From positions 62,001-126,000 of the forward strand of contig SRZB01000004.1 in assembly GCA_004793585.1 (NCBI GenBank): a stretch of 64,000 nucleotides of DNA, written 5' to 3'. Position 1 is the first letter of the stretch, and each line of letters starts with the position of its first letter. The position numbers and the translations under genes are program-made. Source of the DNA: Hominisplanchenecus murintestinalis (GTDB lineage: Bacteria > Bacillota > Clostridia > Lachnospirales > Lachnospiraceae). Under the pieces are notes generated by a model. That model made no database searches and was not told where the DNA came from. It saw nothing but the letters and a program-made list of their open reading frames with translations. This document shows, piece by piece, positions 17,026-42,278 of the stretch.

Positions 17026-17102
17026 AAATGTTACACAAATGTCCGAGGTGTCTTTGATTTCGACAGAAAAACAGGCTGAATTGTTACAAAGCTCGGACAT
17101 TT
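17026..17102 (-). promoter_or_regulatory. Compound operator upstream of the double-receiver gene
   Basis: AAATGTTACA (17026-17035) and AAATGTCCG (17037-17045) on the left; ATTGTTACA (17080-17088) and CGGACATTT (17094-17102) on the right. The same elements occur before the genes starting at 23756, 37833 and 42215, with the same five-base gap between TTACA and CGGACATTT in every copy that has the right half. Confidence 0.7.
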
Positions 17103-17126
17103 CAAAATATTTTGTCAAGGGATAGC

Positions 17127-17167
17127 AAAAATCAGTGGAGCAGCTAATGAACCGCTCCACTGATTTT
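17127..17167 (-). terminator. Terminator of the methyltransferase gene
   Basis: AAAATCAGTGGAGC pairs with GCTCCACTGATTTT around a 12-base loop. On the minus strand it lies 14 bases after the methyltransferase stop and ends in a T-run. Confidence 0.8.
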
Positions 17168-17181
17168 CCCAAACGTCCAAT

Positions 17182-17967
17182 TTAACGCTTTTTTAGTTCG
17201 GCAATAGCACCATAATGTAAAATATCAAATTCATTAGGCGCAATATGTTCAAGGAGTGTTCTATGTTCTTGTTCCCACATAGAAATTTCTTTTTCGGTAA
17301 GCGAAGCACCAATTCCACGACACGCTTTCATTCTTCCATTCCAGCTTTCATGGGTGAATGGTATTCTTACAGTAAATTCTTCGTGATGTACAAGTTCAAA
17401 GTTTTCTTTATAGCAATCGGGTATGTCTATTTGATGTATCGTTTCTCCTGCACCACTCCAGTTAGGACTATATTTTAACACAAGTTTTTCACTTGCTCCC
17501 GCAATTTTATCCTCAAATGGAAGCCATGCCATATATAAAACAAGAATCTTTCCCTCTTTTTTAAGCATACGATAAAACTTAGGCATAACAATTTTATGGT
17601 TAAAATACCAAAAACATTGACAGGCTGTGATTACATCAAAAGAATTATCTGAAAAACTTATATCTTCTGTTGGCACAACGTAATAATCTATATCCATATC
17701 TTTTGAAAGGATTTTGGCTTGTTCAATTTGATTTCCTGAAATATCGGTAGCCCTCCACTTCGCCCCATACTGGTACATATTTCTGGGAAGCACCCCTGTC
17801 CCTGTTCCAACATCAAGGATAGATTGTCCGTCTATACATAATTTGCGGTCAACAATTTTTTGATAAAATTCTTTTGGATAAATATCACGGAACTTTGCAT
17901 AATCTAAAGAGGTTTTCCCCCAATCAAAAGGTTTTCCGTTATCTATATCTCTATCAGTTATCTTCAT
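17182..17967 (-). CDS. Class I SAM-dependent methyltransferase
   Basis: The start is the ATG at 17967 (GGAGG six bases upstream), giving 261 residues. Rossmann-fold methyltransferase with motif I in ILDVGTGTGVLPRNM near residue 48, an acidic position after beta-2 (WRATDIS), and motif IV-like FDVITACQCFWYFNHK, as in ubiE/COQ5-like small-molecule methyltransferases. Substrate unknown. It is not a 23S rRNA Erm enzyme, since the Erm target-base motif is absent. Lower GC than the recombinase region suggests separate acquisition. Its own terminator follows. Confidence 0.85.
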   Translation of the reverse strand: MKITDRDIDNGKPFDWGKTSLDYAKFRDIYPKEFYQKIVDRKLCIDGQSILDVGTGTGVLPRNMYQYGAKWRATDISGNQIEQAKILSKDMDIDYYVVPTEDISFSDNSFDVITACQCFWYFNHKIVMPKFYRMLKKEGKILVLYMAWLPFEDKIAGASEKLVLKYSPNWSGAGETIHQIDIPDCYKENFELVHHEEFTVRIPFTHESWNGRMKACRGIGASLTEKEISMWEQEHRTLLEHIAPNEFDILHYGAIAELKKR

Positions 17968-20425: not shown

Positions 20426-22810
20426 TTATTCCATTGCCCTGATTTGCTCAACAAGAGATTGCTTTTTCAGATTTCCAGTTGTGTAAGAAATCAAGGTAAA
20501 CTGCACAATCAGCAGGATTGCTAAATATATCAATACGATCAGCCACGGAAATGAATAATAAAAGTATGGATTCATCATTTTCACAACTACCTGTACGGAT
20601 AGGAAGCCCAATCCAGTTCCCAAAACCACTGTTACAAGCGTAGCAAAAACGGAATAAATCAATCCCTCATAACACAGCATTTTGATCAGTTGCTTTTTAC
20701 TCAAACCAATTGCCTGTAACATTCCAATTTCCTGCCTGCGGGACAGAAAGTTTGTGATTGTCGTATTGACAAGGTTGATTAAAGAAAAGCACACAACAAT
20801 AACAGCCACGATCAACAATACCCCGAAAGAAAGTTGTTGAAGTCCGCTATAATAAGAGATACTTTCTTTTATGGTTTCCATAACCAAATCGCTATTTCCG
20901 TCTATCAGTTGATTTAATGCAGCTTCAACCGTATCAAATTTTTCCATATCGGTAATTACGGAAATCGTACCTGTGCAATCTATCCCGGTCGCTTCATTCA
21001 TAAGCTGCTCTGGAAGCGCAAAGCATTTTGAAAAGCCGGAGTAAGAATATTCGTTTACAATGCCCATGACGGTATAGGTCTTTGTGCGAATTTGGCCGGA
21101 TTTGGTTTTATAGTCCACTTCGACGGTATCACCCAACGCAGCCTCAATATCATAGAGATCGGCACGCTCTTGAAGCAAGACAATTCCATTGCCTGCCACC
21201 AGTTCATCATAATCAATGGTGCCTGCAATTCGTTCTTCCTCTAAATTCTGCTGCTCATCCCGGCAAAAGCCCTGAATCCATTTTCCAGAATTACCATTTA
21301 CAAGATATTCTGCGTCTGTGTAATACCAGCGCTTGATTCCTGTAACCCCATCAATAGATTCTACTGCATTTACAAAATCGGCATTTAGAAAATTCTTTTG
21401 CTGCAATCCAGACAAAGAAATACCGGCGGTGTCCCACGATTGATTTGCGTTGAGCTGGATGTTAAATTCACCGACAGGGAACGCCCTGCCTCTTGCCTCT
21501 GCAACGCCATCATAGGAAACTAACATTGTCGAAATCAATACAACCAATACTCCGCCGAGTGAAAGAGAAAGTATTGTTAAAGTGGACTTTGCCTTTTGTC
21601 TGGACAGATTCATTTTAGCAAGTGAAGCAGGCGTTATTTTACGGTGCAACACGGAACTTTCTTTCATTTTTCCTTGATAATCGGAATATCGCAATGCTTC
21701 CAGCGGAGATACTGCCGCAGCTCTTTTTACAGGAGTATGAATAGCAATCATCACAATAATAAATGCAAAAAGGCCAACCCCGGCCGTCACACATAAAGTA
21801 GTCAGCCAGTACCAACCGGCAGGAATCAGGAAGTACCCAATCACATTTCCAATAACCAGACCAATCGGGATAGCAATGGCAGCAAGTAATTTTCCCTCGC
21901 GGTAAACCATCTTTTTGATCTGTCGTTTTGTAGTTCCGATTGTGCGAAGCTGTCCATAGTTACGGATACTGCTTGCTACTGAAATATAAAAAATCGAATA
22001 GATCACAATGCCGGAACCAATGAAAGTTACAAAACCGATCAAGAAATAGAACAGCATATCGCTTCCGTGATTTTCGTCCTTTAAGTTAAAATATGTGGAA
22101 CGGACAATCACACTATCATCGGAAATTTTTAATTGCTGCGCCAGAGTGTTTGCATAGTTGGTGGCTTCTTCCTCGCTCATATTTTGAGCGCCTTTCAGCC
22201 CAATGTAATAATCAATCATGCCCTCGTCGCCATACTGCTGTCTTACTAATTCTTTCGATATAATGGCTGTATAGCGCCCAATATCGCCGGTTTTCACATC
22301 TAAGATTCCCGTCAATTTGAAATCATGGGTAGTCCCGTCAGAAAAGGGAATTTGAATTGTCTGTCCCAATTCATTTGAATAGCCCAAACTATCCAAAAAG
22401 GATTCCTGCACTACAATTTCATTCTCCGAAGCTGGTAAATCTCCCGAATAGGGCATACTTTGGGATTTTAGCATATCTGCATTTGCATAAGTAAAATTCA
22501 CGGTTGAATGGTTTACCTGTTCAGAAAATGCGTTAAAAAATTCCCCAACCCACGCAATTTCTTCTTGCTTGTATAGTTCTTGTCCCTGTTGTTCAGAAAT
22601 CGCATGGTACATAATCTGTGCTGTTTTTTGGTTGCGGTTCTGCGTTTCCTGCATAACTCCAAAGCCATAGAGGACAATGGCAGATAGCAATGCGCTGGCA
22701 AGTGCAATCGTCAAAACAATAAAGATATTTCTTTTTCGATTTGCCGAGATACTGCGATTTGATATGCGCTTTACTATGCCACTGGTGTCATTTTCAAAAG
22801 GCCATGTCAT
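20426..22810 (-). CDS. FtsX-type ABC permease 1 (peptide-antibiotic transporter family)
   Basis: 794 residues with a good GGAGG before the ATG. It begins MTWPFENDTSGI, a signature shared with two other permeases in the cluster. One membrane helix lies at about 28-50, then a large extracellular domain. A first FtsX block of three helices lies near 250-370, followed by a second extracellular domain, and a second FtsX block near 660-790 contains NFLSRRQEIGMLQAIGLSKKQ. This layout fits MacB/BceB-like transporters that remove or sense antimicrobial peptides at the membrane. It lies 14 bases downstream of its ATPase gene. Confidence 0.9.
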   Translation of the reverse strand: MTWPFENDTSGIVKRISNRSISANRKRNIFIVLTIALASALLSAIVLYGFGVMQETQNRNQKTAQIMYHAISEQQGQELYKQEEIAWVGEFFNAFSEQVNHSTVNFTYANADMLKSQSMPYSGDLPASENEIVVQESFLDSLGYSNELGQTIQIPFSDGTTHDFKLTGILDVKTGDIGRYTAIISKELVRQQYGDEGMIDYYIGLKGAQNMSEEEATNYANTLAQQLKISDDSVIVRSTYFNLKDENHGSDMLFYFLIGFVTFIGSGIVIYSIFYISVASSIRNYGQLRTIGTTKRQIKKMVYREGKLLAAIAIPIGLVIGNVIGYFLIPAGWYWLTTLCVTAGVGLFAFIIVMIAIHTPVKRAAAVSPLEALRYSDYQGKMKESSVLHRKITPASLAKMNLSRQKAKSTLTILSLSLGGVLVVLISTMLVSYDGVAEARGRAFPVGEFNIQLNANQSWDTAGISLSGLQQKNFLNADFVNAVESIDGVTGIKRWYYTDAEYLVNGNSGKWIQGFCRDEQQNLEEERIAGTIDYDELVAGNGIVLLQERADLYDIEAALGDTVEVDYKTKSGQIRTKTYTVMGIVNEYSYSGFSKCFALPEQLMNEATGIDCTGTISVITDMEKFDTVEAALNQLIDGNSDLVMETIKESISYYSGLQQLSFGVLLIVAVIVVCFSLINLVNTTITNFLSRRQEIGMLQAIGLSKKQLIKMLCYEGLIYSVFATLVTVVLGTGLGFLSVQVVVKMMNPYFYYSFPWLIVLIYLAILLIVQFTLISYTTGNLKKQSLVEQIRAME

Positions 22811-22824: not shown

Positions 22825-23490
22825 TTACTCCACGATCTTGCCGTCCTCAATGCGGACAATCCGATCTGCAAGACGGGCTATGTCGTTGTTGTGGGTAATC
22901 ATCACGACAGTTTGTCGGAACTCCGCACTGGTGCGCTTGATAAGCCCCAGCACCTCGGCGCTGGTCTTGCTGTCAAGGTTGCCGGTCGGCTCGTCGGCCA
23001 GCACGATAGCCGGTTTTGTAATCAAGGCGCGGGCGATAGCCACACGCTGCTGCTGGCCGCCGGAAAGATTGTTCGGCATATTTTTCAGTTTATCTTCCAG
23101 CCCCAGCAGATGAACGATCTCGTTCAAAAACTTCTGATCCACCGTGTCCCCGTCCAGCTCCACCGGCAGGACGATGTTCTCATACACATTCAGAATAGGA
23201 ACAAGGTTATAGTTCTGGAAGATAAAGCCGATGTTGCGGCGACGGAAGATGGTAAGCTGCTCGTCGTTCATTTTTGACAAGTCTTTGTCCCGGACAATCA
23301 CATTGCCGGAAGTAGGGGTGTCCAGCCCGCCCATCATGTGAAGCAGGGTAGACTTGCCGCTGCCGGAGGTTCCTACAACAGCCACAAACTCGCCGTCCTC
23401 CACGGAGAAGTTCACACCGTCAAGGGCGCGGGTAATGTTCGGCTCTGTGCCGTAATACTTTTTCAGGTCGATCGTCTGTAAAATACTCAT
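22825..23490 (-). CDS. ABC transporter ATPase (MacB/BceA-like)
   Basis: The start is the ATG at 23490 with AAAGGA nine bases upstream, giving 221 residues. Complete ATPase: Walker A GTSGSGKSTLLHMMGG, Q-loop FQNYNLVPILNVYEN, signature [15 protein letters not shown], Walker [13 protein letters not shown] and H-loop MITHNND. The LVPILNVYEN and DEPTGNLD forms are typical of the antimicrobial-peptide/lipoprotein-release subfamily. It is the only ATPase in the 20-42 kb cluster, so it probably powers all the MTWPF-type permeases there. Confidence 0.93.
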   Translation of the reverse strand: MSILQTIDLKKYYGTEPNITRALDGVNFSVEDGEFVAVVGTSGSGKSTLLHMMGGLDTPTSGNVIVRDKDLSKMNDEQLTIFRRRNIGFIFQNYNLVPILNVYENIVLPVELDGDTVDQKFLNEIVHLLGLEDKLKNMPNNLSGGQQQRVAIARALITKPAIVLADEPTGNLDSKTSAEVLGLIKRTSAEFRQTVVMITHNNDIARLADRIVRIEDGKIVE

Positions 23491-23495
23491 AAAAT

Positions 23496-23756
23496 TCAAT
23501 CCTTTCTTTGTTTATTGTAAATGTGGAACGCTGCTGCGCCGGTGGCCGCCAACTGTACCAGAATCAGCACCGCGAACAGACCGAAGCTCTCATAGTAGAA
23601 CAGTTCATCCAAAAACAGGAGAACATCACAGAGAGCAGTCAAGGCAACCGTCCAGCGGATGTGCCGAGCCAGCCATTGCCGGAACACCAGCACAAGGGCA
23701 ACGGGCGGGACGATCAGCAGCGCCAGATTCAAAATCAAGGTCGGGGTCAGTTCCAT
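23496..23756 (-). CDS. Small three-helix membrane protein of the ABC operon
   Basis: 86 residues with GGAGG eight bases before the ATG. Hydrophobic segments lie at about 5-24, 34-50 and 56-78, with a short basic C-terminus (YNKQRKD). No catalytic motif. Five bases separate it from the ATPase start, and it is the first gene after the compound operator, so it leads the operon small protein - ATPase - permease - Xre regulator. Probably an accessory subunit or sensor; unrecognised. Confidence 0.75.
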   Translation of the reverse strand: MELTPTLILNLALLIVPPVALVLVFRQWLARHIRWTVALTALCDVLLFLDELFYYESFGLFAVLILVQLAATGAAAFHIYNKQRKD

Positions 23757-23800
23757 TGCGTCGCCTCCTTGCTTTTGCTGATAAGGGTATTGTAAAACCC

Positions 23801-23877
23801 AAATGTCCGCGAAATGTTACAGCGGTCAAAAAATTTCATCGAAAATCGGGGTGAAATGTTACAGCACTCGGACATTT
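23801..23877 (-). promoter_or_regulatory. Compound operator/promoter of the ATPase operon
   Basis: AAATGTCCG (23801-23809) and GAAATGTTACA (23811-23821), then a second GAAATGTTACA (23853-23863) and CGGACATTT (23869-23877). On the minus strand a TACAAT -10 element lies just downstream, and the site covers the -35 region, suggesting activator-dependent transcription. The 89-base block is nearly identical to the one at 37866-37954. Confidence 0.72.
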
Positions 23878-23882
23878 CAAAA

Positions 23883-26024
23883 TCAGTCTGCCATTTTGAT
23901 CCGTTCCACCAACGAATTTCTGCATTGAATTTTTAGACAGATAGCAGAAATTATAATCGGTGTTATTATTAAGCAGACACCGTAAATCAATAATGGAATA
24001 AAAGGAAAAGCGTATTGAAAATAAGTTAATCCATTTGTAGATAATATCCGTACTAACAAATAACCCATCGAGGTTCCTGCCACAAGCGTAATAATCAAGC
24101 ATGGAATAATCAGTAAGACGCTTTCATGCAGCAACATTTTCTTTATCTGCTTTTTTGTCATACCGATAGACTCCAATATTCCAAATTCTTTTCTCCTTGT
24201 ACTGATACGACTAATCAAGGTGTTTGTCAGATTAAAAATGCTAAACATAATGACAAAGGCAGATACCCCATAAACTTGTACGCTAGTATTATGAATCGTA
24301 TTTGCTGAAGATGCTTTTACCTCTTGTAAGGTTTCCATTACCAAATCAGGGTGTTTGGACAGTATTTCATTTAACTTGCTTTCTACTGATTTACCCACTT
24401 TTTCATATTCGGGTACGGACAAAGTTAAAGAAGCTGTTAAATCCATATCTCCCCACAACTTTTCTATGGTTTCTTTTGGAAGATAAAAACCCTCATTCAT
24501 ACTTTTTTCGGAAGTACCGGCAATTAAAACATCTGTGCTGTGTTCAATTCCATCGAACCATCGTAATGTCTCTTTTTCTCCTATTGATGGGCAAGTATGA
24601 TAGACTTCGTTCTGTACGCTTGTCCCTAATATAACCATAGCGTTTTGTTTCACCAATGTTTCGTATGTCCAATCGACAGGAAGCGTTTTCAAAATTTCCT
24701 CCTGATTATCAGGTGTAATCGGAATAATGGGAATTTCTAATTGTTCATCGTGATACTCAATAATGGCTGCGGTTCTCTCCGTAGCATAAATCTCTTTAAC
24801 TTCCGGGATTTGTTGCAATTCTTCCATGAGTTCCTGTGAAAAAGGCGTATCAACTTGATACTCCGAAATGCCATACGGTTTCGGGTTGACTAATGTATTG
24901 TGGTTAATCGTAATATAATATTCTCCATCTTCCAAATTCCCCATTCTCGCAAAGGAATCTGGATTCCATGATGATATAAAAGTGGCTCCAACCATAAATA
25001 AAATCCCACCGATTGCAAGTGAGGCAATCGTCAGATTGTGTTTTTTTCGATCCTGCTTTTCGCTTAATACAGCTAAAGAATACGGTGAGAGACGAATATG
25101 ATTTTTCCTTTTCCGCGCTTTACTTTCTTTCAGTTCTGAATCATTTCCAACATATTTTGTTGCTTCAATGGGGGGAATTTTTGAAGCTATTTGTGCAGGC
25201 TTATATATGGAAATTTGTACGATGATAATGCCTAATATTATTGCGAAAATACTTGTAGCTATGGCATTGAGAATCGTTATCCCATTCGGCTCTAACAAAT
25301 ATGCAAATATGATACCTACTGCAATACCGGCAGGTATTCCGAACAGGCAGAAACGATACCCCTCTTTACGAATCATCCGCTTAATTTGTTTTTCTGTCAT
25401 GCCAATAGTTTTGAGCTGTCCAATCTGCTGCACTTGATTTGATACCGAAAGGTAGAATACACTGTATATGACAATCCCACTTGAAAATGCAATAAAAAGC
25501 GTAGCTAAAAGAACACTTCCCATTCCTGATCCACTAATAAGTGAGGAACAGAATTTGCTATTAAAATAAAGTTGATTCCTACTTATGTCTTGCGATGAAG
25601 CAAGACGATATACTGTATTCTCAAAATCAACAAGTCCCATTTCTGTCGCACCATTTACACGAATCAAAGCACTATACGGAATATCAGATAATAACACGCC
25701 CCGTTCTGCATATGCCGGGGAGACATAAAAGTAATATGTTCCTGTTTCCACATTATCAGTAAAACCAGTAATGATAAAATCCTCTGTTTTACTCTCCGCC
25801 GTTGGTAAAGTGATGGTATCTCCTATATTTAGCTGATAGCCCAGCTCTAATTGAACATTTTTATCAATTACAATTTCATTGTACTGTTCTGGACGGGTTC
25901 CACTGACTAATTCATAAGATTTTATAATTCCAAAACCAGTCGGCATATAAACCGCTTCAAATTTGATCCCATCCATCAGAAAACTATTACTATGCTTAAG
26001 GTCAGTACGTATAAAGGACAAGAC
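23883..26024 (-). pseudogene. FtsX-type ABC permease 2, C-terminal part of a split gene
   Basis: 714 codons. The frame carries the first extracellular domain and both FtsX blocks (QQIGQLKTIGMTEKQIKRM and STRRKEFGILESIGMTKKQ) but lacks the N-terminal MTWPF segment and first membrane helix. Upstream of 26030 the sequence is unrelated and meets a stop codon. The missing 100 codons are at 37534-37833. Joining the two at the shared GAAAA gives KEVF followed by VLSFIRTD in one frame and a total of 813 residues, close to the 794 and 802 of its paralogues. The nested element between the fragments therefore inactivated this permease. Confidence 0.88.
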
Positions 26025-26132: not shown

Positions 26133-26156
26133 CATTCTTGAAAAGGAGGGCACTCA

Positions 26157-33344: not shown

Positions 33345-33368
33345 CCGAGAAATGCGTCTCACGGTGAG

Positions 33369-34950
33369 TAATGTCATTAAGCTAGCCGCGAAGAAAGAAA
33401 CGGCAAAAGGCAATGGGATTCCGAAGGAAATCCAGAAGGAGCTTATCAGGAAAAAGAGGCAGCAAAAGCAGACGGAGGCAGCTCCGTCAGAAAAAGGATA
33501 TAGAAAAGGTCAGCGAGCGGAGGCATAGCAGGCGGAAATGCGGTTACCCGTGATTTTTGGCCTTGGGGCGGTGCGTCCGGGGCGAAGCGGGAGCAGTCTT
33601 CGTCGGAGAAGCAGGAGCGGATCAGCGGCGGAGCGGCGCAGGAAAGCACAGCAGGCAAAGACAGCGTCGGAGAAATTGACATGACGCTTGTATTTGGCTG
33701 TGCCCTGAGACGCGTCCACAGCCCAGGCAGCGGCCTGGGTGAAATTAAAGATGAGGAAACTGGCGAAAACCTCCTGGAGGACAAGGTCCGGCTTCTTTGC
33801 GTGAAGATGGATGAGACCCACGGCGTATTTCAGGCTGCGGAAGGAGGTCTCAATGCCCCAGCGTCTGGCGTAGAGGGCTTTGAGGGCGGCGAGGGGGAAC
33901 CGGTCCGGGTCGAGATTGGTGATAAGGGTTTCCGTATTGCCGCTGTCGGTCTGCAAACGAACAACGCGAAAGGATATTTCGTAGAAATCCGGGCTGTTCG
34001 ACTCTAAAAAGTCAAATGTCATTGTGGGCGGGATACGGTAATAGGACTTGGGGACGGCGATGCCCCGGGTCTCCAACTGCCGCGGCGTCAGCCGGCCCAG
34101 GGTGAGTTTGAGGGGAATGTCGAACTCCAACTGGTCAGGCAAAGGCATACCGTATGCAATGCCCCGAGCCTTGTCCCGAATACGGATCAGGTAATTCCAG
34201 TTCCGCTTCTCCAGGTGGGCCAGATTGTTGCAGGATTCGTAATTCCGGTCAGCCAGCAGGATCACCTTTCCGGAAACGCGGGAGCGGTCTGCCATCTGGC
34301 ACAGGGCGCTGCACTCGTTCTTTTCGTGCTCCTTCTGCACGATCAGGTCGGTATAAATGCCGTTTTCCAGGTCAAAGAGCGCATTCATGTGCCAGAGGTT
34401 CCAGCCGTGCTGTCTGGGCGTGCCCGGGCGGTAGGAGGCTGGGTCCTCCGGGTAGGCGGCGGATTTCAGCGACGAGCCATCCACTGCCAGCAGACGATGG
34501 CCACGAAAGGTCTTCCCAGGGCGCAGCAGGGCTGTGAAGCGGTGGAACAGCGTCTCCAGCGCCGCGGGCAGCAGCTTCTGCCGCTGCTGGACAAAGGCCG
34601 AAGCCGACGGTGTTTTTTCGCTGTTTTGAAACCGTCCGATCAGTATTTTTCCAATGCTGTTTTCGCTCATGGTCAGCAGCAGGGATATGACCGTTTCGAA
34701 GGTCAGCGTCCGGGGACGGGTAAAATCCCGCCCCGGCTGCCTGACGTATTGTTCTGGGTGCTCCCCCATTTTCCGGATCATAGAAAGCAGCATTCCCCGC
34801 AAAAATTTTGGTGTATATTTCATGTGCGGCGTCCCCCCGAAAAGCAAGTTTACTTTTCAGGGCTTCGCCGCACATTTTTCCTCCTTTGTCAACCCATTTT
34901 TACATCTTTTTTGACTTTATTTTCTCCCTATTCCCAACTTAATGACATTA
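33369..34950 (-). mobile_element. IS4-family insertion sequence, 1582 bp
   Basis: Perfect 13-bp terminal inverted repeats TAATGTCATTAAG / CTTAATGACATTA enclose one transposase gene. An 11-bp target duplication (CTCACGGTGAG) flanks it, in the 10-12 bp range usual for the IS4 family. Both ends are intact, so the copy looks recent and potentially active. Confidence 0.9.
33510..34823 (-). CDS. IS4-family DDE transposase
   Basis: 437 residues from the ATG at 34823. Catalytic residues are visible: Asp in LAVDGSSLK, Asp in VILLADRNYES, and Glu in the Y-(2)-R-(3)-E-(6)-K signature of IS4 transposases (YARRWGIETSFRSLK). The C-terminus is rich in Arg and Leu. It cuts and reinserts the surrounding 1582-bp IS. 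The gene is full length with no frameshift. Confidence 0.92.
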   Translation of the reverse strand: MKYTPKFLRGMLLSMIRKMGEHPEQYVRQPGRDFTRPRTLTFETVISLLLTMSENSIGKILIGRFQNSEKTPSASAFVQQRQKLLPAALETLFHRFTALLRPGKTFRGHRLLAVDGSSLKSAAYPEDPASYRPGTPRQHGWNLWHMNALFDLENGIYTDLIVQKEHEKNECSALCQMADRSRVSGKVILLADRNYESCNNLAHLEKRNWNYLIRIRDKARGIAYGMPLPDQLEFDIPLKLTLGRLTPRQLETRGIAVPKSYYRIPPTMTFDFLESNSPDFYEISFRVVRLQTDSGNTETLITNLDPDRFPLAALKALYARRWGIETSFRSLKYAVGLIHLHAKKPDLVLQEVFASFLIFNFTQAAAWAVDASQGTAKYKRHVNFSDAVFACCAFLRRSAADPLLLLRRRLLPLRPGRTAPRPKITGNRISACYASAR

Positions 34951-35143
34951 CTCACGGTGAGACGCATTTCTTTGTATCGGCGTTACAATTCCAATGCAAA
35001 AATTGTTGTATCAGGCAGGTAAATAAAATGTTTTGACTTGTTTTGAGTTTTATTTCAGTTTTGGCTATTCGGCATCGTGATACATACAAAGGGCGAAATC
35101 AAGACGTAAGAAACAGGAACAGCAACCAATACAGCGATTGCTG

Positions 35144-35174
35144 AAAAATGTGTCTCACGGTGAAACGTATTTTT
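35144..35174. repeat. GTCTCAC palindrome, copy 5 (imperfect)
   Basis: AAAAATGTGTCTCAC and GTGAAACGTATTTTT around a single G, two mismatches in the arms. Confidence 0.75.
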
Positions 35175-35645
35175 AGGAAACTGTCGTTTTCTAAAATCTT
35201 TTGGGAAGTTTTGCCCATTCCTGCGAATAATGAACAAAATCCGATTTTCACGGATATTAAGTGGTAGAAGCAGGTATTTTCCGTTCGTAGGAAAAAGGCT
35301 TGACTACAACTGAATAAGGCAATCAGATACATTCTGTATGCGCGGAGCCGGGCGGCGGGTACGCAGGGATGATCTCCCGTGAAAGGAGGCCGGACACTGG
35401 GAGGACGGAGCGAACAGGGCCAGCGCCGCAAAGCTGCTATGGCACAGCAGCAGGCCACGAACCGCATACAGGGGAGATACTTGCGTCGGCTATGCGTCAC
35501 AGCGTAGGACGCCCCGCCACGGGAATGGGGGGAGGCACGAAAAATTCTATGGAGCGGCCCTGCCAGCCGCCGTCTGGCTCTGCCTTTGTTTTTACATCGT
35601 GAACAACGAAATATAAAACCGCCAACCAGCGCGAAATTTGTCGTT

Positions 35646-35670
35646 AATGCGTCTCACCGTGAGACGCATT
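35646..35670. repeat. GTCTCAC palindrome, copy 6
   Basis: AATGCGTCTCAC and GTGAGACGCATT around one C, perfect arms, followed by a T-run. It may terminate transcription before the recombinase promoter. Confidence 0.85.
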
Positions 35671-35775
35671 TTTTATGAAAAGAATTTGCCCGCGAGGGAG
35701 TTGCCGTTTCTGGAAAATGAAGCGATTACTTGACAAAGAAACCAAGTGAAGAAGAATAAAAAACTTGTCGAAAAT

Positions 35776-35804
35776 TTGACGTTTTCCTTGACATCTAATA
35801 TAAT
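35776..35804 (+). promoter_or_regulatory. Promoter of the nested-element recombinase
   Basis: TTGACG (35776-35781), a 17-base spacer and TATAAT (35799-35804), 48 bases before the recombinase start. CGGTAACTGCC (35826-35836) just downstream is the inverse of GGCAGTTACCG at 26044-26054 near the left end. Confidence 0.7.
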
Positions 35805-35852
35805 ATAAGTGTCACAAGGCCAGAAACGGTAACTGCCGGATTGGAGGCTGAA

Positions 35853-37499
35853 ATGATTAGGCAGTCAGGCAATTTGAATGAAAAATGGACAGCCCTCTAC
35901 GTCCGGCTCTCCCGCGATGATGAGAACGAGGGGGACAGCAACAGCATAGCCCATCAAATCGAAATCCTCACCAGGTATTGTCAAGACCGTGGAATTTCCA
36001 GCTATAAGGTTTACAAAGATGACGGATGGAGCGGTACAAATTTCAAACGTCCCGGCTTTATGGAAATGATGGCCGACATTGAGGCAGGGCTTGTCAGTAT
36101 GGTGATAGTCAAGGATATGTCCCGGTTTGGCAGGAATTATCTGGAAGTGGGGCTATATACGGAAATCCGATTTCCAGAACTGGGAGTCCGATTTATCGCC
36201 GTCAATGACGGAGTGGACAGCGAGGATCAACTGGGAAATGACTTCACCCCGTTCAGAAATATCATAAATGAGTGGTATGCCAAAGATACGTCGAAGAAGA
36301 TACGGGCGGTTTTCCGCAACAAAGGAATGTCGGGCCAGAGGCTGGCATCAAACGCTCCCTACGGCTACATAAAGGGCGAGGACGGACACCTTTTGGTGGA
36401 CGAGGAAACCGCCCCCGTGGTGGAGTTGATTTTCCAGCTATGTGTGGAGGGCAACGGCCCTGGTAAAATTGCCCGGATGCTGAAAGAGAGGGAAATCCCA
36501 ACGCCGGGGACGATTGAGTTTCGGCGCACAGGCCGGACAAGCCGTTACTACCCGGATGATCCCTGCCGCTGGAATCCCGCAACTGTCCTGAGCATTTTGG
36601 AACAGGATACTTATTTAGGCCGCACAACGAATTTCAAGACCACAAAACTCTCCTACAAGAGCAAGAAAGCAATCATCAATCCCCCGGACAAGCGGGCGGT
36701 GTTTGAGGGCACCCATGAAGCGATTATTGACAGGGAGACATGGGAAATCGTACAGAAGAATCGGGAGCAGCGCCGCCGCCCTACCAAGCTGGGCGAAATG
36801 GGACTGTTCTCCGGGCTGGCCTACTGCGCCGATTGTGGAGCAAAGCTGTACCACCACCGCACCGTTACATTTACAAAAGAACAGGAGAGTTACACTTGTG
36901 CAAACTACCGCTCCAGAAAGCAATGCACCGCCCATTATATCCGGGCCGTGGTGCTGGAACAGCTTGTACTCCAAAATTTGCAGAGGGTGGTAGCCTACGC
37001 ACAGGATGACGAGGATGAGTTTGTGCGGCGCGTCATGGAAAACAAGACGGCGGCACAGCGTACCGAGCAGGAACGGGCCAAGCGCAAGCTGGAGAAGCAG
37101 GAGCGGCGTATCAGCGAACTTGACCGCATTATTCAACAGCTTTATGAAGATCGTGTGGCGGGGGCGTTGAGCGTAGAGCGGCTTACCCGGTTGTCCGAGG
37201 GCTACGAAAAGGAACAGGCGGATCTGAAACAGTCCGCAGAGGAATTGCGGGGCGTTGTAGCCGAAACGAAAGCCCAGGCTGTCAATATTCAGAATTTCCT
37301 GAAAATTGTACGGAAGTACACCGAACCCACCGAGCTGACCCCGGCACTTTTGCGTGAGTTTGTGGAAAAGGTAGTTGTTCACGCCCCGGATAAGTCCAGC
37401 GGCCATCGCACCCAGCGCATTGACGTACACTATAACTTTATCGGGGAGATTGATTTTTCCCCGGAATTTAGCAGGTACAGCAAAACGACAACCGCATGA
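35853..37499 (+). CDS. Large serine recombinase of the nested element (TnpX-like)
   Basis: The start is the ATG at 35853, five bases after GGAGG, giving 548 residues. The catalytic domain begins TALYVRLSRDDENEGDSNS with Ser in RLS and contains VKDMSRFGRNYLEVG. The recombinase domain (about 165-300) is followed by the zinc ribbon YCADCGAKLYHH with CTAH-type Cys/His, and a long coiled-coil at 390-480. It lies next to the right end of the 11.5-kb element and is the obvious candidate for its insertion and excision. Its stop codon is inside the 37490-37519 hairpin. It is closest in plan to single-recombinase elements such as Tn4451/Tn5397. Confidence 0.93.
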   Translation: MIRQSGNLNEKWTALYVRLSRDDENEGDSNSIAHQIEILTRYCQDRGISSYKVYKDDGWSGTNFKRPGFMEMMADIEAGLVSMVIVKDMSRFGRNYLEVGLYTEIRFPELGVRFIAVNDGVDSEDQLGNDFTPFRNIINEWYAKDTSKKIRAVFRNKGMSGQRLASNAPYGYIKGEDGHLLVDEETAPVVELIFQLCVEGNGPGKIARMLKEREIPTPGTIEFRRTGRTSRYYPDDPCRWNPATVLSILEQDTYLGRTTNFKTTKLSYKSKKAIINPPDKRAVFEGTHEAIIDRETWEIVQKNREQRRRPTKLGEMGLFSGLAYCADCGAKLYHHRTVTFTKEQESYTCANYRSRKQCTAHYIRAVVLEQLVLQNLQRVVAYAQDDEDEFVRRVMENKTAAQRTEQERAKRKLEKQERRISELDRIIQQLYEDRVAGALSVERLTRLSEGYEKEQADLKQSAEELRGVVAETKAQAVNIQNFLKIVRKYTEPTELTPALLREFVEKVVVHAPDKSSGHRTQRIDVHYNFIGEIDFSPEFSRYSKTTTA

Positions 37500-37519
37500 C
37501 GCCACAGCATCATGCGGTT
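37490..37519. terminator. Perfect hairpin at the right end of the nested element
   Basis: AACCGCATGA and TCATGCGGTT (10-bp arms) around a 10-base loop. It contains the recombinase stop and lies 15 bases inside the deduced right crossover. It may be a terminator or part of the recombination site. Confidence 0.55.
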
Positions 37520-37533
37520 GCACTCCCAATAGG

Positions 37534-37833
37534 GAAAACTTCTTTATGCGTATTGCACATATAGGGTACAATATCTTCAAGTTCAGGTTCTTTTTTCAGA
37601 ATTTCTATCTGTTCTGCTGTAAGCCCTCCGATGGTAACTTGCTGCATTTGATTCAAAATCTTTTGTTCGCTGATTTTGCTGCCTTGTTGGAATAAGGAGA
37701 TTCCCACAATCAAACTAATTGCCAGCGCAATGGTCAAAACATTAAAAAAGCAAAAAATACGATTTGAAGATACATTGCGTTTTGCCAACTTTTTTGTAAT
37801 GGCACTTGTATCGTTTTCAAAAGGCCATGTCAT
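37534..37833 (-). pseudogene. FtsX-type ABC permease 2, N-terminal part of a split gene
   Basis: 100 codons from the ATG at 37833 (GGAGGTGATACAACT before it). It begins MTWPFENDTSAITKKLAKRN, has the first membrane helix (FNVLTIALAISLIVGISLF), and ends at ...HKEVF, where the nested element starts. The frame then runs a few codons into element sequence and stops. The rest of the gene is at 23883-26024. It retains the compound operator at 37876-37952, so a useless N-terminal peptide may still be expressed. Confidence 0.88.
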
Positions 37834-37875
37834 AGTTGTATCACCTCCATATTTGATAAAGCTATTGTAAAACCC

Positions 37876-37952
37876 AAATGTCCGCGAAATGTTACAGCGG
37901 CCAAAAAATTTCATTGAAAATCGGGGTGAAATGTTACAGCGCTCGGACATTT
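37876..37952 (-). promoter_or_regulatory. Compound operator/promoter of the split permease
   Basis: AAATGTCCG (37876-37884), GAAATGTTACA (37886-37896), GAAATGTTACA (37928-37938) and CGGACATTT (37944-37952). The surrounding 89 bases differ from the 23791-23879 block at only three positions. Confidence 0.72.
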
Positions 37953-37998: not shown

Positions 37999-39030
37999 CT
38001 ATTTTGTAGGCAGCATAATGGAAAATTCCGAACCCTTGCCCGGCTCCGAAACCACTTTGATATAGCCGCCCTGCCGCGTTACGATCTCGCGGGCCAGATA
38101 TAGGCCAATGCCCACGCCCTGCTGTTCGTGTACTTCTTCCTCACGATAAAAGCGCCGGAAGATGGCGGCCTGATTGCTTTCGGAAATGCCCTTGCCAGTG
38201 TCGGTCACTTTGATCTCCACATACATTTCCCACAGCACCACCGACACAGCGATTTTCCCGCCTGCCGGGGTGTACTTCACCGCATTGTCCAGCAGGTTAA
38301 AGAGGGCTTCCGATGTCCACTTGCTGTCATGGGAAACGGTCAAATCCTCCGGGCAATCCACGGACACGGCGATTTCCTTTTTCTCCGCTGCATACACGAT
38401 CCCACTCATAGCCTGCGCCACAGTATCAAAAAGGCGACCCGGTTTCTTGTCCAACTGGATCACGCCTGTTTCCAGCCGGGAGGTTTTTACAAGGGCCTGA
38501 AAGAGAAAGTCCAGCTTATCCGTCTGGCTGCGGATTCCCCGGATAAAGTCGGTGCGCTCCGCCTCGGCCATAGGCTTTTCCAGCAGGGTGTCCGTCGCCA
38601 TTTTCAGATTGCTTACCGGCGTTTTCACCTGATGGGAAATATCTGATACAAGGGTCTGTAACTCCTGCCGTTCCTCGTCCACCCGGCGGCGGTTCTCCTG
38701 CATGATCTGGTAAAGCCTTGCCAGCCGGTGTCCGATTCTGGCAAGCTGGGTTTCGCTGTCCTCCGGGCGTTTTGGCGCTTCATTCCCGGCGATCATGTGG
38801 TCTAAGGTCTGGCACAGGTCAGCGGTAAACTGTGACAGCCGCTTTCCAAACGCCTGCGTCAGTACGAAAATCCCCACAAGGGCGCACAGCAGCAGCGCCC
38901 CGCCCGTCAGCAGCACCGCAATTTGTTTCGTCACAAAAAACAGGGCTATGGTGATCCCGGACATGGAGAGGGCAAGCCCTATTGCCACCCGGCCAAACAG
39001 CCGCTTTACCGAGAGGTTTTGAAACTTCAT
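37999..39030 (-). CDS. Intramembrane-sensing histidine kinase (BceS-like)
   Basis: 343 residues from the ATG at 39030; this start overlaps the response-regulator stop by four bases (ATGA), and the longer frame is not needed. Two membrane helices (about 13-35 and 38-62) are separated by only a few residues (TKQI), so there is no sensor domain outside the membrane. The cytosolic part has ISHQVKTPVSNLKM, LLDNAVKYTP, DTGKGIS and VGIGLYLAREI. Kinases of this shape normally read the state of a partner ABC permease rather than a ligand, which fits the FtsX permeases on both sides. Confidence 0.92.
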   Translation of the reverse strand: MKFQNLSVKRLFGRVAIGLALSMSGITIALFFVTKQIAVLLTGGALLLCALVGIFVLTQAFGKRLSQFTADLCQTLDHMIAGNEAPKRPEDSETQLARIGHRLARLYQIMQENRRRVDEERQELQTLVSDISHQVKTPVSNLKMATDTLLEKPMAEAERTDFIRGIRSQTDKLDFLFQALVKTSRLETGVIQLDKKPGRLFDTVAQAMSGIVYAAEKKEIAVSVDCPEDLTVSHDSKWTSEALFNLLDNAVKYTPAGGKIAVSVVLWEMYVEIKVTDTGKGISESNQAAIFRRFYREEEVHEQQGVGIGLYLAREIVTRQGGYIKVVSEPGKGSEFSIMLPTK

Positions 39031-39719
39031 TTTGCCTCGCCTCCCGTCCATTGATAGCCCATGCCGTAAACGGTCTTGATGTAGGGCGCGCCGCCGTCGG
39101 ATTCGATCTTGCCGCGAATCCGGCTGATGGAGGTTGTCAGGGTGTGTTCGTCCACAAACCTTTCGTCTATATCCCACAGCTTTTCCAAAAGCTGCCCACG
39201 GGTCAGCACTTGCCGGGGATTTTTACGGAACAGGTTCAGCATTTTGTACTCCATCGGGGATAGGGTCAGGGGCTTGCCATTTAAGGAAGCCGTCTGCTCC
39301 GAGAAGTCCAGAAACAGCCGCCCGTCGTCGTAAATGTCCTTAGCCGGTTTGTGGTGTTCCAGCATGGCGAACATGGCTTTGATTTTCCGCTGCAAGGCCC
39401 CGATCACAAAGGGCTTTGTGATGTAGTCCACCGCACCCACCTCATAGCCCCGTATCTGGTCGCTCTCCTGATCGTTGGCGGTTAGGAAAATTACGATAGT
39501 GTCCGGGTGCTGGGGCTTGATCAGCTTGCACAGCTCAAAACCGTTGCCGTCCGGCAGATTGATGTCCAGCAGCACTAAATCAAATTCCCGCTGGCGGATG
39601 GCTGCGGCTGCGGTTCTGGCATTCAGGGCAGAAGTCACGCCGTAGCCGTCTGCGGTCAGGTTATAGGCCAACATCTTACTTAAAAAACTGTCGTCCTCGA
39701 CAATTAAAATCTGCTTCAT
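39027..39719 (-). CDS. OmpR-family response regulator (BceR-like)
   Basis: The start chosen is the ATG at 39719, giving 230 residues. The receiver has LIVEDDSFLSK, phosphoacceptor Asp in LVLLDINLPDGNG, FLTAND and DYITKPF. The winged helix has LTLSPMEYKMLNLFRKNPRQVLTR, ISRIRGKIE and VYGMGYQW. Partner of the overlapping kinase. It lies 87 bases after the 802-residue permease on the same strand, so permease and two-component genes may share a transcript. Together with the split regulator at 15650-16982 it is a candidate to bind the compound operators. Confidence 0.93.
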   Translation of the reverse strand: MKQILIVEDDSFLSKMLAYNLTADGYGVTSALNARTAAAAIRQREFDLVLLDINLPDGNGFELCKLIKPQHPDTIVIFLTANDQESDQIRGYEVGAVDYITKPFVIGALQRKIKAMFAMLEHHKPAKDIYDDGRLFLDFSEQTASLNGKPLTLSPMEYKMLNLFRKNPRQVLTRGQLLEKLWDIDERFVDEHTLTTSISRIRGKIESDGGAPYIKTVYGMGYQWTGGEAK

Positions 39720-39806
39720 ATCCTCACTTCCTTTGCTTTTTGCAGATGATATAACAGGCAAATTATCCCATGTTGCGGAAAACATAATTTTCTGATAAAG
39801 GAAAAT

Positions 39807-42215
39807 TTACTCCATTGTTTTAATACGCTCAATCACAGGATGCCTTTTGCTGTATCGTACAGAGAAAACGGAATAAACTACCAGTATGAAGAAAAGCACT
39901 GCAAAATATATACTTATTTCTAAAACTGGAAAATGATAAGTCAATGTCCCGAATGTCCCAACCTGATTGAAAACTTTGCAGAGTATAAATCCTGCTAAAG
40001 TTCCAATCGTTAAAGTTAGAATAGCCGTACCAGCAACATAATAAAAACATTCGGTTTGCAGCATTTTAGAGAATTGCCTACTGCTCAATCCCACAGACTG
40101 TAAAATACCAAATTCCTGCTGCCTTGATATAATGTTTGTCATCAGCGTATTGATAAGGCTGATTAGCCCAAAAACAGAAATGAAAAATACCAATCCATAT
40201 AACGGCATTTTTATGTTATCCATTTCCTCTTGCAGATAAGTAATAATATCGCTGATACTGAAAACTTCTATACCTCCATGATTTTCTGCCAACTGGAATA
40301 TCTTATTCTCAACTTCTGTAAGCTGATCCCTTTCCACATCTACAATGCAGGTCATATTGAAGTTGGAAACATTTTCTTTCATCATAGATAAGAGTTCCTG
40401 CGGAAAATAGAAAAATGCTGAATCCCCACCGAGATCAGGGGCTTTTCCAATCCCCATTACAGTAAATTCTTCCCATTGTCCATCCGTTGTTTCCACTTTG
40501 ACTATATCGCCAATTTGAGGGGTGTAATTATAATAGTCGCTTAACAGCCTGGTTGAATTATCAACGATAACTCCTTTTCCATTGATAAGTTTCTGGTGGT
40601 CTGCGGTTCCCTCTATCAGTCCTTGTGAAAAGTCCTCGTACTGATTTTCAGGAATTCCAATTTGGGTAAAGAAATGGCTGTTACCATCCTTGAAAGGAGT
40701 GGGAAATTCCATATTTGAAACACAGCCCTGTATAAATTCAATATTCTTTACGCCATCCATATCTGAAATTGTTTCTTCCAAAACTTCATCCAATGGATTT
40801 TCCGTTTGAAGTGCATTGATCCCGGCGGGACGGTCTTCCGCATTTGTGTTGGCGGGATCGAGGGAAAGTGCAATGTCGCCATTTGTAAATTGCTGTTTTG
40901 CCATGCTTTCTACATCATTTGAATTAAGGTAGGTGGCTGCACACATCAGTAAAACTCCCGCAAATCCCAAAGACAATACGGTTAGAATAGCTTTTTTCTT
41001 GTTCCGGGCAAAGCTCATTCGGGCAAGCGAAGATGGCGTGATTTTTCGATGTTCGATCCGCGTTTTTTCTGTCGCCGATGTATCAGCAGTATTGATTCGC
41101 AGCGCCTCAATAGGCGATACCATAGAGGCTTTCTTTACAGGGGTATGGACAGCAATTTTTAAGGCAATTTCTGTAACAATGGCAATCACAACGGCGCATT
41201 TCAGTGTAGTCATCCAATGCCAGCCGTCCGGGACGAAACAATAGCCCAAAACACTTCCTAATACAACGCCGATAGGAATTGCGGCACAGGATAACAAAAA
41301 ACTTTCTTTTCGTACGATACGCTTGATCTGAACCGATGTAGCCCCCAGCACACGCAGCCTGCCATATTCATGTATTTTCCCAATAACGGAAATGTAGAAC
41401 AGGCTGTAAATAACCAAAGAACAGGCCAGTACAATTAAACTGCTTGCTCCGATAATCACTAATAGCTCCTGCGTAGATTTTTCTTCTGCCAACCCAAAGT
41501 AAGTAGAGCTATACATAACATACTGTTCAGGTACACCGCTTTGTTCCGCAATTTCGTCTATCGACAGCTTCAAAGTTTCGCTGTCCATATTTTCGGTATT
41601 TTTTAAGCGGACCAAAAGATCGTAACAGTTCGCTTCTCCATACCGGCTATACAAACCATCCGATACAATGATTTGATAAATGCGGGATGCATTACTGCTT
41701 TGAATAATGCCGCAAACATGATATGTCTGCTTTTCTCCAAAAGGCATATCCAGTGTAACGGTCTGATCCAGTTGAACCGACAGCCCTAAATGCTCCAAAT
41801 AGGACTGTTCCACAATGATTTCATTTTCTGCCTCCGGCATTTTTCCCAGCAAGTCGGTAACGCCTTTCAGTTCAAGTGCATTTTGATCTCTATAATACAC
41901 ATCCAAAGTATAGTCATTGATACGGCTCGTTCCCATTGCAGCCTCTTTGCCGACTACTTCGATCTGGTTGTTATGTTCCAGTTTTTCAAAGACGGCACTG
42001 GTACTGTTAATAAAGCTGCCTTGATAACGTCCTTGCAGATAAAGCCTGTATTCACGGTCTGTTCCGAGGTTATATAATGCTAATATCATCATCAAACTAA
42101 CTGCAAAAGCAATCGTTATAACGATAAACGCATTGCGTCTTTTATCCGCTTTCATGCTTCGATCTGCTAATTTTTTTACAATGGCGCTGGTGTCATTTTC
42201 AAAAGGCCATGTCAT
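39807..42215 (-). CDS. FtsX-type ABC permease 3 (peptide-antibiotic transporter family)
   Basis: 802 residues from the ATG at 42215, with GGAGGTGATACAACT before it. It begins MTWPFENDTSAIVKKLADRS like the other two. First helix at about 33-50, a large external domain, the first FtsX block near 260-380 (KIHEYGRLRVLGATSVQIKRI), a second external domain, and a C-terminal FtsX block (ISRQQEFGILQSVGLSSRQFSKM). It has no ATPase gene of its own, so it probably uses the ATPase at 22825. The frame is intact. Confidence 0.9.
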   Translation of the reverse strand: MTWPFENDTSAIVKKLADRSMKADKRRNAFIVITIAFAVSLMMILALYNLGTDREYRLYLQGRYQGSFINSTSAVFEKLEHNNQIEVVGKEAAMGTSRINDYTLDVYYRDQNALELKGVTDLLGKMPEAENEIIVEQSYLEHLGLSVQLDQTVTLDMPFGEKQTYHVCGIIQSSNASRIYQIIVSDGLYSRYGEANCYDLLVRLKNTENMDSETLKLSIDEIAEQSGVPEQYVMYSSTYFGLAEEKSTQELLVIIGASSLIVLACSLVIYSLFYISVIGKIHEYGRLRVLGATSVQIKRIVRKESFLLSCAAIPIGVVLGSVLGYCFVPDGWHWMTTLKCAVVIAIVTEIALKIAVHTPVKKASMVSPIEALRINTADTSATEKTRIEHRKITPSSLARMSFARNKKKAILTVLSLGFAGVLLMCAATYLNSNDVESMAKQQFTNGDIALSLDPANTNAEDRPAGINALQTENPLDEVLEETISDMDGVKNIEFIQGCVSNMEFPTPFKDGNSHFFTQIGIPENQYEDFSQGLIEGTADHQKLINGKGVIVDNSTRLLSDYYNYTPQIGDIVKVETTDGQWEEFTVMGIGKAPDLGGDSAFFYFPQELLSMMKENVSNFNMTCIVDVERDQLTEVENKIFQLAENHGGIEVFSISDIITYLQEEMDNIKMPLYGLVFFISVFGLISLINTLMTNIISRQQEFGILQSVGLSSRQFSKMLQTECFYYVAGTAILTLTIGTLAGFILCKVFNQVGTFGTLTYHFPVLEISIYFAVLFFILVVYSVFSVRYSKRHPVIERIKTME

Positions 42216-42257
42216 AGTTGTATCACCTCCATATTTGATAGGGCCATTATAAACCCC

Positions 42258-42278
42258 AAATGTCCGCGAAATATTACA
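42258..42278 (-). promoter_or_regulatory. Half copy of the compound operator before permease 3
   Basis: AAATGTCCG (42258-42266) and GAAATATTACA (42268-42278), the left half of the block seen at 23801 and 37876. The right half is missing because the sequence changes into a relaxase fragment at about 42300. Confidence 0.65.

What the first reader, a model, noticed from the sequence alone, without database searches (positions are those of the whole stretch)
17026..42278. One compound operator at four promoters spread over 25 kb
Blocks of AAATGTCCG and GAAATGTTACA (with CGGACATTT five bases after the second TTACA) occur before the double-receiver gene (17026-17102), the ATPase operon (23801-23877), the split permease (37876-37952) and permease 3 (42258-42278, half). 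Two of the copies differ at only three of 89 bases. None was seen before the second peptide system. This defines a regulon linking the split regulator, one ATPase and three permeases.
Basis: partly seen in the sequence, partly recalled or inferred. Interest (0 to 1): 0.75.

Follow-up and report, generated by a model that had tools for sequence, protein, structure and literature searches.

The report
Shared switch for swappable membrane pumps
In gut Firmicutes a nearly identical stretch of about 90 DNA bases stands in front of a regulator and a changing set of membrane-pump genes, and it is likely the place where that one regulator binds to turn the whole set on, so that pumps could be exchanged without rewiring their control.

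Summary
The block is a promoter operator of fixed geometry: an inverted AAATGT box, ACATTT boxes 18, 42 and 11 bp further on, then a -10-like element 12 bp on. Full copies stand before the double receiver, the ATPase operon and the (interrupted) permease; the promoter-proximal half stands before permease 3, upstream of regulator and kinase. In the whole genome only 7 good sites exist, all in two copies of this module. In 80 loci whose response regulator is at least 95% identical, mostly Clostridia, the same sites recur before regulator, ATPase, permeases and double receiver. They persist where the regulator is 58-91% identical; there the long spacer is mostly 42 or 32 bp, one helical turn apart. 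Regulator and operator coincide across 299 genomes. So the regulator at 39027-39719, rather than the winged-helix protein, is the likely binder. Unexpectedly, regulator, kinase and ATPase are nearly constant, while the permeases behind the operators fall into 19 families (17 groups even at 50% identity, median pairwise identity 26.5%), exchanged repeatedly and joined at operator and leader. Binding, inducing signal and phenotype are untested.

The parts
17014..17102 (-). Full operator (OP' form) with -10 TATGCT (17014-17019); boxes at 17026-17031, 17037-17042, 17079-17084, 17097-17102; before the double-receiver gene
23789..23877 (-). Full operator with -10 TACAAT (23789-23794); boxes at 23801-23806, 23812-23817, 23854-23859, 23872-23877; before the small membrane protein, ATPase and permease genes
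37864..37952 (-). Full operator with -10 TACAAT (37864-37869); boxes at 37876-37881, 37887-37892, 37929-37934, 37947-37952; before the interrupted permease (family P3)
42247..42278 (-). Half operator (direct repeat only) with -10 TATAAT (42247-42252); before permease 3 (family P4), regulator and kinase
39027..39719 (-). Response regulator, receiver plus winged-helix output (OmpR/PhoB type); likely binder of the operator
   Evidence: Response_reg, Trans_reg_C
37999..39030 (-). Histidine kinase; hydrophobic N-terminus with almost no extracellular part
   Evidence: HisKA, HATPase_c; hydropathy
39807..42215 (-). Permease 3 (family P4), FtsX type, starts MTWPFENDT
37561..37833 (-). 5' part of the interrupted P3 permease (starts MTWPFENDT)
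23883..25998 (-). 3' part of the interrupted P3 permease; 95% identical DNA to an uninterrupted relative in genome G009
25999..37560 (.). Element inserted in the P3 permease (RepA_N protein, transposase, large serine recombinase with DUF4368)
23496..23756 (-). Small hydrophobic protein of the module, no family match
22825..23499 (-). ABC ATPase of the module
20426..22810 (-). Permease (family P2), FtsX type, starts MTWPFENDT; best fold match E. coli YbbP
16203..16982 (-). Double-receiver protein, no output domain found by Pfam, behind OP'
15650..16141 (-). Winged-helix protein; rarely found with the operator elsewhere, so an unlikely binder

Best explanation
The repeated block is a compound promoter operator that the response regulator encoded at 39027-39719 likely binds, once phosphorylated by the neighbouring kinase, to activate its own operon, the ABC ATPase, the permeases of the array and the double-receiver gene together. 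Shown by sequence: four copies of one 6-mer at fixed spacing; the proximal two form an 11-bp tandem direct repeat whose first half sits where a -35 element would be and whose second half ends 6 bp before a -10-like hexamer; an inverted pair stands further upstream at transporter and double-receiver promoters and is missing at most regulator promoters. Inferred: a head-to-tail regulator dimer on the direct repeat stands in for the -35 contact, and a second dimer on the upstream pair, on the same helix face, strengthens the transporter promoters, so that weak self-activation of the regulator precedes strong induction of the pumps. Inferred: the kinase, which has almost no extracellular part, is switched by the permeases, whose extracellular domains differ from family to family, in the manner of Bce-type systems; the shared MTWPFENDT start of the permeases would be part of what lets one kinase and one ATPase serve them all. 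Inferred: the near-identical operator and leader also serve as seams at which permease genes are exchanged between modules.
For: Geometry 18/42/11/12 in 91 of 106 full sites and 23 of 29 OP' sites, although OP' spacers differ in sequence (sites were picked by box sequence, with a range of distances, 30-75 bp in all, allowed between the parts). Sites in 83 sequences (80 loci, window, C127, G009): 106 full (68 before the ATPase, 30 a permease, 4 the small protein, 4 unclassified), 89 half (64 regulator, 9 P4, 16 other), 29 OP' (24 double receiver, 5 unclassified), 19 with the upstream pair only. Direct repeat plus -10 in the 80 loci: 216 sense, 2 antisense hits, one of these a reversed regulator copy. 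In 15 loci with regulator 58-91% identical: 28 sense, 0 antisense hits in 155,584 bp; 27 of 28 lie 53-122 bp before the matched start of regulator, ATPase, small protein or permease; upstream pair (up to 3 of 14 mismatches) at 16 of 28, always 18 bp apart though 16-20 were allowed; long spacer 42 in 7, 32 in 6, and 41, 40, 19 once each. Of 299 family genomes 23 carry the regulator at 75% or more; 21 of these and 4 of the other 276 have the core at up to 2 mismatches (Fisher p 3e-26). The two exceptions have direct-repeat sites; two of the four extras are cut by a contig end beside the site. Regulator 95-100%, kinase 92-100% (one rearranged copy 81%), ATPase 92-100% (C127 89%), against 19 permease families.
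Against: No binding, footprint, transcript or phenotype was measured. The -10 assignment is a consensus match. Long spacers of 40, 41 and 19 (3 of 16 in divergent loci) and of 41 or 43 (11 of 106 full sites) show that phasing is tolerant. Of 12 regulator copies at 75-91%, three lack a passing half-operator promoter directly upstream: G258 has none found, and in G280 (C30) and G014 the direct repeat is there but no -10 passes at the usual offset. Of 10 copies at 53-64% only three were examined; they have sites of this kind, but none of the seven genomes with only such copies has the strict core. Exchange by recombination at the operator is inferred from seams; operators within one locus are not more alike than between loci (230 of 300 shuffles as low). 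Permease family is not free of the chassis lineage: changes on the tree are fewer than in every one of 60 shuffles. The MTWPFENDT start is unplaced in the single-chain model (residues 1-8 below pLDDT 50).
Confidence: 0.83

Rival explanations
1. Another regulator of the island, such as the winged-helix protein at 15650-16141 (with or without the double receiver), binds the operator, and the response regulator at 39027 is only one of its targets.
For: The winged-helix protein is an output domain without a receiver and lies next to a protein with two receivers and no output found.
Against: A homologue (60% identity or more) was found in only 3 of 83 sequences that carry the operators, whereas the response regulator tracks the operator in 21 of 23 genomes at the strict threshold and in the two others at the looser one. 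Contig and locus ends limit the absence count.
Confidence: 0.06
2. The repeats are mainly a recombination or integration site of the mobile element and have no role in transcription.
For: Gene content changes at the blocks: slot-1 permease genes of families P3, P5 and P7 begin at the operator and end 4-8 bp before the next one; different upstream contexts are joined near the half site; in 13 of 83 sequences the last operator is left at the same base for a common other sequence.
Against: A fixed distance to a -10 hexamer, one-turn spacer variants, orientation towards the gene, and presence before the regulator itself are not expected of a recombination site.
Confidence: 0.06
3. The operator copies are recent duplications that carry over by descent alone, without selection on the boxes.
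For: Close loci are similar throughout: the two window copies differ at 3 of 90 bases, and regulator DNA is 92.8-100% identical to the window's among 83 sequences.
Against: In loci with regulator 58-91% identical the spacers have diverged while boxes, 11-bp repeat, 18-bp pair and -10 distance persist.
Confidence: 0.04

Closest known systems
Bce-type peptide resistance modules (BceRS-BceAB, PsdRS-PsdAB, GraRS-VraFG)
   Same: Response regulator, kinase with almost no extracellular part, ABC ATPase and FtsX-type permease encoded together; regulator likely drives the transporter genes.
   Different: Permease has two extracellular domains in the model and its best fold match is YbbP, not BceB; operator is an 11-bp direct repeat plus inverted pair, with none of the three inverted-repeat consensus sequences tested, while BceR and GraR are reported to use inverted repeats (PMC3128592, passages seen); one near-constant kinase goes with 19 permease families, against the reported coevolution of transporter and kinase (PMC5985334, passages seen).
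OmpR/PhoB-family tandem activator sites (for example ArcA, PhoB)
   Same: Direct repeats with 11-bp centre-to-centre distance and extra boxes beyond the first pair (ArcA: PMC3798270, passages seen). The PhoB box standing in for a -35 element is recalled.
   Different: Here the extra boxes are an inverted pair 18 bp apart, mostly 42 or 32 bp upstream, at transporter and double-receiver promoters.
E. coli YbbAP / MacB superfamily permeases
   Same: Best fold match of the predicted P2 model: YbbP, TM 0.64/0.63 over the whole length; YbbP is described as two fused MacB units with two periplasmic domains (PMC5985334, passages seen).
   Different: YbbP is described with two linking helices; eight hydrophobic segments were counted in P2, P4 and P6. 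Encoded with a two-component system and in families with a constant N-terminal start.
VraH, small membrane partner of VraDE
   Same: Small membrane protein working with an ABC transporter (VraH: PMC5985334, passage seen).
   Different: No family match for the 86-residue protein; relation not tested.

Membership tests
Bce-type module | Kinase without an extracellular sensor domain | tested here: met
   Hydropathy of the kinase N-terminus shows a nearly continuous hydrophobic stretch, residues about 11-62, with no room for a domain
Bce-type module | Permease with ten helices and one extracellular domain between helices 7 and 8 | tested here: not met
   P2: 8 hydrophobic segments (this crude count varies from 8 to 11 among six families) and two extracellular domains in the model; fold match YbbP TM 0.64/0.63, best BceB chain 0.35/0.42. 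Model pTM 0.64. Definition from PMC5985334 (passage seen)
Bce-type module | Regulator site is an inverted repeat of the Bce/Aps/Psd/Gra type | tested here: not met
   AnnTTACnAnnnnGTnAG (PMC10858260, passages seen), ACAAATTTGT (PMC3128592, passages seen) and a recalled TNACA-N4-TGTNA, exact matches only, are absent from all four window operators
Bce-type module | Transporter and kinase coevolve | tested here: not met
   Kinase 92-100% identical (one rearranged copy 81%) while permeases fall in 19 families. On the regulator-kinase tree the family changes at least 15 times in slot 1 (72 loci) and 26 times behind the ATPase (63 loci); shuffled means 23.7 and 32.1, so some association remains
Bce-type module | Induced by and protecting against peptide antibiotics | not testable with these tools
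   No expression or phenotype data
OmpR/PhoB-type activator site | Regulator with receiver and winged-helix output | tested here: met
OmpR/PhoB-type activator site | Direct repeat with 11-bp spacing at a promoter | tested here: met
OmpR/PhoB-type activator site | Binding of the phosphorylated regulator | not testable with these tools
   Needs gel shift or footprint
YbbP-type permease | Two MacB-like units with two extracellular domains in one chain | tested here: met
   Predicted model of P2 (mean pLDDT 79.9, pTM 0.64) and fold search; one of 19 families was modelled

The most novel reading that the evidence does not exclude
A plug-in sensing array: a mobile, constant chassis (regulator, sensor-less kinase, ATPase, operator) accepts any of at least 17 permease groups that carry the operator-leader at the DNA level and the MTWPFENDT start at the protein level. 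The permeases are the variable sensors, the constant start is the docking tag, and the operator is both control element and recombination handle, so a gut bacterium gains a new peptide-sensing pump that is correctly regulated on arrival.
Probability: 0.42. Interest if true: 0.87.

Novelty: new variant of a known kind. Interest (0 to 1): 0.7.

Why it matters
Bce-type systems are described as sets in which transporter and kinase evolve together. Here one nearly invariant regulator-kinase-ATPase set is found with 19 different permease families behind the same operator, in 80 loci of Firmicutes (many from genera known from the gut) reaching into at least two classes. That makes a general question testable: which part of a transporter does a sensor-less kinase read? 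The constant start of otherwise dissimilar permeases is a concrete candidate. It also gives a defined operator with which to call this regulon in genomes and metagenomes, and an example of regulation that travels with an exchangeable gene.

Tried and rejected
Winged-helix protein as the binder: set aside because it was found in only 3 of 83 sequences with the operators. Genome-wide regulon: not seen in this genome, since hits outside the two modules appear only at 3 mismatches, 4 against 2 controls. Within-locus homogenisation of operators: not supported; within-locus mean 3.07 differences, slot1-slot1 2.72, slot2-slot2 3.08, cross 3.00 in 29 loci, 230 of 300 shuffles as low. Known inverted-repeat motifs in the operators: none of three found. 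The hit at 47386 lies inside an ORF and was dropped as chance.

Corrections and selections. The kinase identities are void, because I used a wrong frame (37999-39040); redone with 37999-39030. The permeases were collected with a pattern requiring an M-T/K-W/R-P start, so the first seven residues were selected for; a check by similarity (segments of 550 residues or more) found 103 of 114 FtsX-like segments with the start, the other 11 being two GTG starts with the same residues, two with one substituted residue, two whose start lies in masked sequence, two interrupted genes and three untagged transporters. One search gave 20 clusters at 80% linkage, but one (P19) is a P5 gene broken by an insertion; the other 19 share 17.0-60.4% pairwise identity, median 26.5% over 171 pairs, two pairs (P2-P17, P9-P20) being above 42%; 17 groups remain at 50%. 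In some searches slot 1 showed 16 changes with the window and L061 mis-scored for that reason; corrected, 15. One search looked at 11 of the 16 half sites that are not before regulator or P4: 3 are the regulator after all, 2 an untagged ABC operon, 1 the small protein-ATPase, 5 remnants. The 80 loci are the best 80 of 444 relatives, hence biased to close ones.

Papers: searches listed none that, by title and start of abstract, describes this module; only open-licence papers are held and only the top rows were listed, so this does not show that it is unpublished.
Full report
What is there. On the minus strand, in the direction of transcription, each full block reads as four copies of one 6-mer: AAATGT (inverted), ACATTT 18 bp on (ACAATT in the double-receiver copy), ACATTT 42 bp on, ACATTT 11 bp on, and a -10-like hexamer 12 bp after that. 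The three full copies, before the double receiver, the ATPase operon and the P3 permease, have this spacing exactly, although the double-receiver copy has different spacer sequence and the GG- and TA-flanked boxes of the proximal pair in reversed order. The copy before permease P4 has only the proximal pair, one base off. The two closest copies differ at 3 of 90 bases.

More than chance, and confined. In the whole genome the 21-base core gives 5 hits and no control hit, and the wider promoter pattern 7 hits at 0-2 mismatches. All lie in two modules: the window and contig C127, where the order is half operator, regulator, kinase, full operator, ATPase, permease, OP', double receiver. At 3 mismatches there are 4 more hits against 2 controls, taken as chance.

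The system in other bacteria. A search with the regulator returned 444 relatives in GTDB genomes, of which the best 80 loci (95-100% identity) were kept. NCBI ranks place 75 in Clostridia, one in Erysipelotrichia, one in Bacilli (a record named Lactobacillus rogosae) and leave three unassigned. Core matches fall at 0-2 mismatches (187) or at 5-6 (234), with nothing at 3-4; the reversed control has 29 hits, all at 5-6. The sites obey a grammar: half operator, (P4), regulator, kinase, full operator, (permease, full operator) repeated, (small protein), ATPase, permease, OP', double receiver; parts in brackets are not always there, and the last two are missing or unseen in many loci. Counts: full sites 106 (68 ATPase, 30 permease, 4 small protein, 4 unclassified); half sites 89 (64 regulator, 9 P4, 16 others, of which 11 were looked at); OP' 29 (24 double receiver, 5 unclassified); 19 more with the upstream pair only. 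The regulator also occurs on 3 of 72,556 plasmid records, at 97.8, 80.4 and 59.1%.

Footprint in divergent relatives. The regulator was sought in the same 299 family genomes as the core. Of 23 genomes with a regulator at 75% or more, 21 have the core; of 276 others, 4 do. All 12 regulator copies at 75-91% and 3 of 10 at 53-64% were examined. Direct repeat plus -10 was found 28 times on the sense strand and never on the other; 27 of 28 lie 53-122 bp before the matched start of regulator, ATPase, small protein or permease, the last near a locus end. The upstream pair (up to 3 of 14 mismatches) is present at 16 of 28 and 18 bp apart in all 16; the long spacer is 42 in seven, 32 in six, and 41, 40 and 19 once each. 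A step of one helical turn is what two protein units on one face of the helix would require. The -10 match over the divergent set peaks at the expected offset (4.62 of 6; next best 3.09). Against this: three of the 12 copies at 75-91% lack a passing half-operator promoter directly upstream (G258, G280 C30, G014).

Which regulator. The response regulator has receiver and winged-helix domains, and 11-bp tandem repeats are known from its family (ArcA, PMC3798270, passages seen). Winged-helix homologues were found in 3 of 83 sequences. Hence the response regulator is the likely binder; binding is not shown. The published motifs of PsdR/ApsR and GraR, and a recalled BceR-type motif, are absent.

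Constant chassis, changing permeases. Regulator identity is 95-100%, kinase 92-100% apart from one rearranged copy at 81%, ATPase 92-100% apart from 89% in C127. The permeases form 19 families at 80% linkage, 17 groups at 50%, median pairwise identity 26.5%. Between slot-1 families (P3, P4, P5, P7, P12, one representative each) the operator (96-98%, without P4), leader (90-100%) and first 24 coding bases (92-100%) are nearly the same; bases 24-60 range from 42 to 92%, and the windows beyond from 33 to 60% (P19, the broken P5, set aside). The permease stop lies 4 bp before the next operator in 11 of 12 P3, 8 bp in 8 of 9 P5 and 7 bp in 4 of 4 P7, but 131 bp in both P12. The first 27 bases are nearly the same in one member of each of the 20 clusters, synonymous sites included, and largely so in divergent loci. 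On the regulator-kinase tree the permease family changes at least 15 times in slot 1 and 26 times behind the ATPase (63 loci, 15 states), fewer than in any of 60 shuffles (means 23.7 and 32.1). So permeases are largely, though not wholly, uncoupled from the lineage of the kinase. An expectation that operators within a locus would be homogenised was not met.

Permease and kinase. The P2 model shows two units of helices, each with an extracellular domain; the best fold match is YbbP (TM 0.64/0.63), the best BceB chain reaching 0.35/0.42. The first eight residues have low confidence. The kinase has no room for an extracellular sensor. By analogy with Bce systems (PMC10314905 and PMC5985334, passages seen), the permease would be the sensor. 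That step, the inducing peptides and the role of the MTWPFENDT start are inference.

Mobility. The window holds three tandem serine recombinases (8995-13871) and two relaxase-like ORFs (53077-55747). The P3 permease is interrupted at 25998/37560 by an element with its own serine recombinase; an uninterrupted relative exists in G009. Upstream of 89 half sites 22 sequence clusters were seen, by eye at least eight distinct contexts, and 13 of 83 sequences leave the last operator at the same base for another common sequence. The module edge therefore tends to coincide with an operator.

Verdict. Observation confirmed, interpretation supported and sharpened. It works like a Bce-type circuit but fails three Bce membership tests (permease topology, operator type, coevolution), so it is filed as a new variant.

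Noticed in passing
window 25999-37560: An 11.6 kb element (RepA_N protein, transposase, DUF4368 serine recombinase) interrupts the P3 permease with a 2-base overlap at the ends; P5 permeases of L061 and L092 are also interrupted near codon 80.
   Followed up: partly
first 27 coding bases of the permeases, e.g. window 22784-22810, 37807-37833, 42189-42215: One member of each of the 20 permease clusters has nearly the same first 27 nucleotides, including synonymous sites, although the proteins are otherwise mostly below 42% identical; the tag is largely kept in loci with regulators 64-91% identical.
   Followed up: partly
L070:6682, L076:6682, L106:about 1106: Half operator in front of an ABC ATPase-permease pair; in L070 and L076 the permease lacks the MTWPFENDT start, in L106 the ATPase is 47% identical to the module's: the regulon seems to reach a second kind of transporter.
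   Followed up: partly
L028, L030, L035, L045, L056, L062, L063, L064, L065, L081, L089, L090, L021: The last operator is left right after CGGACATTT and continues with the same sequence ATAGTTCTTCC in 13 of 83 sequences; no double receiver was found there within the flanks held. What joins here is unknown.
   Followed up: no
window 8995-13871 and 53077-55747: Three tandem large serine recombinases and two relaxase-like ORFs: the module is probably cargo of a mobile, perhaps conjugative, element.
   Followed up: no
window 16203-16982: Double-receiver protein with hundreds of relatives in protein databases (373 at E 0.001): its second receiver seems, by reading, to lack the paired acidic residues and the conserved lysine; a possible phosphate sink or connector under the same operator.
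   Followed up: no
window 17182-20344: A methyltransferase, a RibD-like protein and an Xre-type regulator lie between permease P2 and OP' in the window and were not found (60% identity or more) in the other 82 sequences as held.
   Followed up: no
upstream of the half operator in L024-L103: By eye at least eight distinct upstream contexts are joined about 20 bp upstream of the half operator; nearest upstream ORFs of eight loci include Xre-type regulators, a response regulator, an ABC-2 membrane protein and an integrase.
   Followed up: partly
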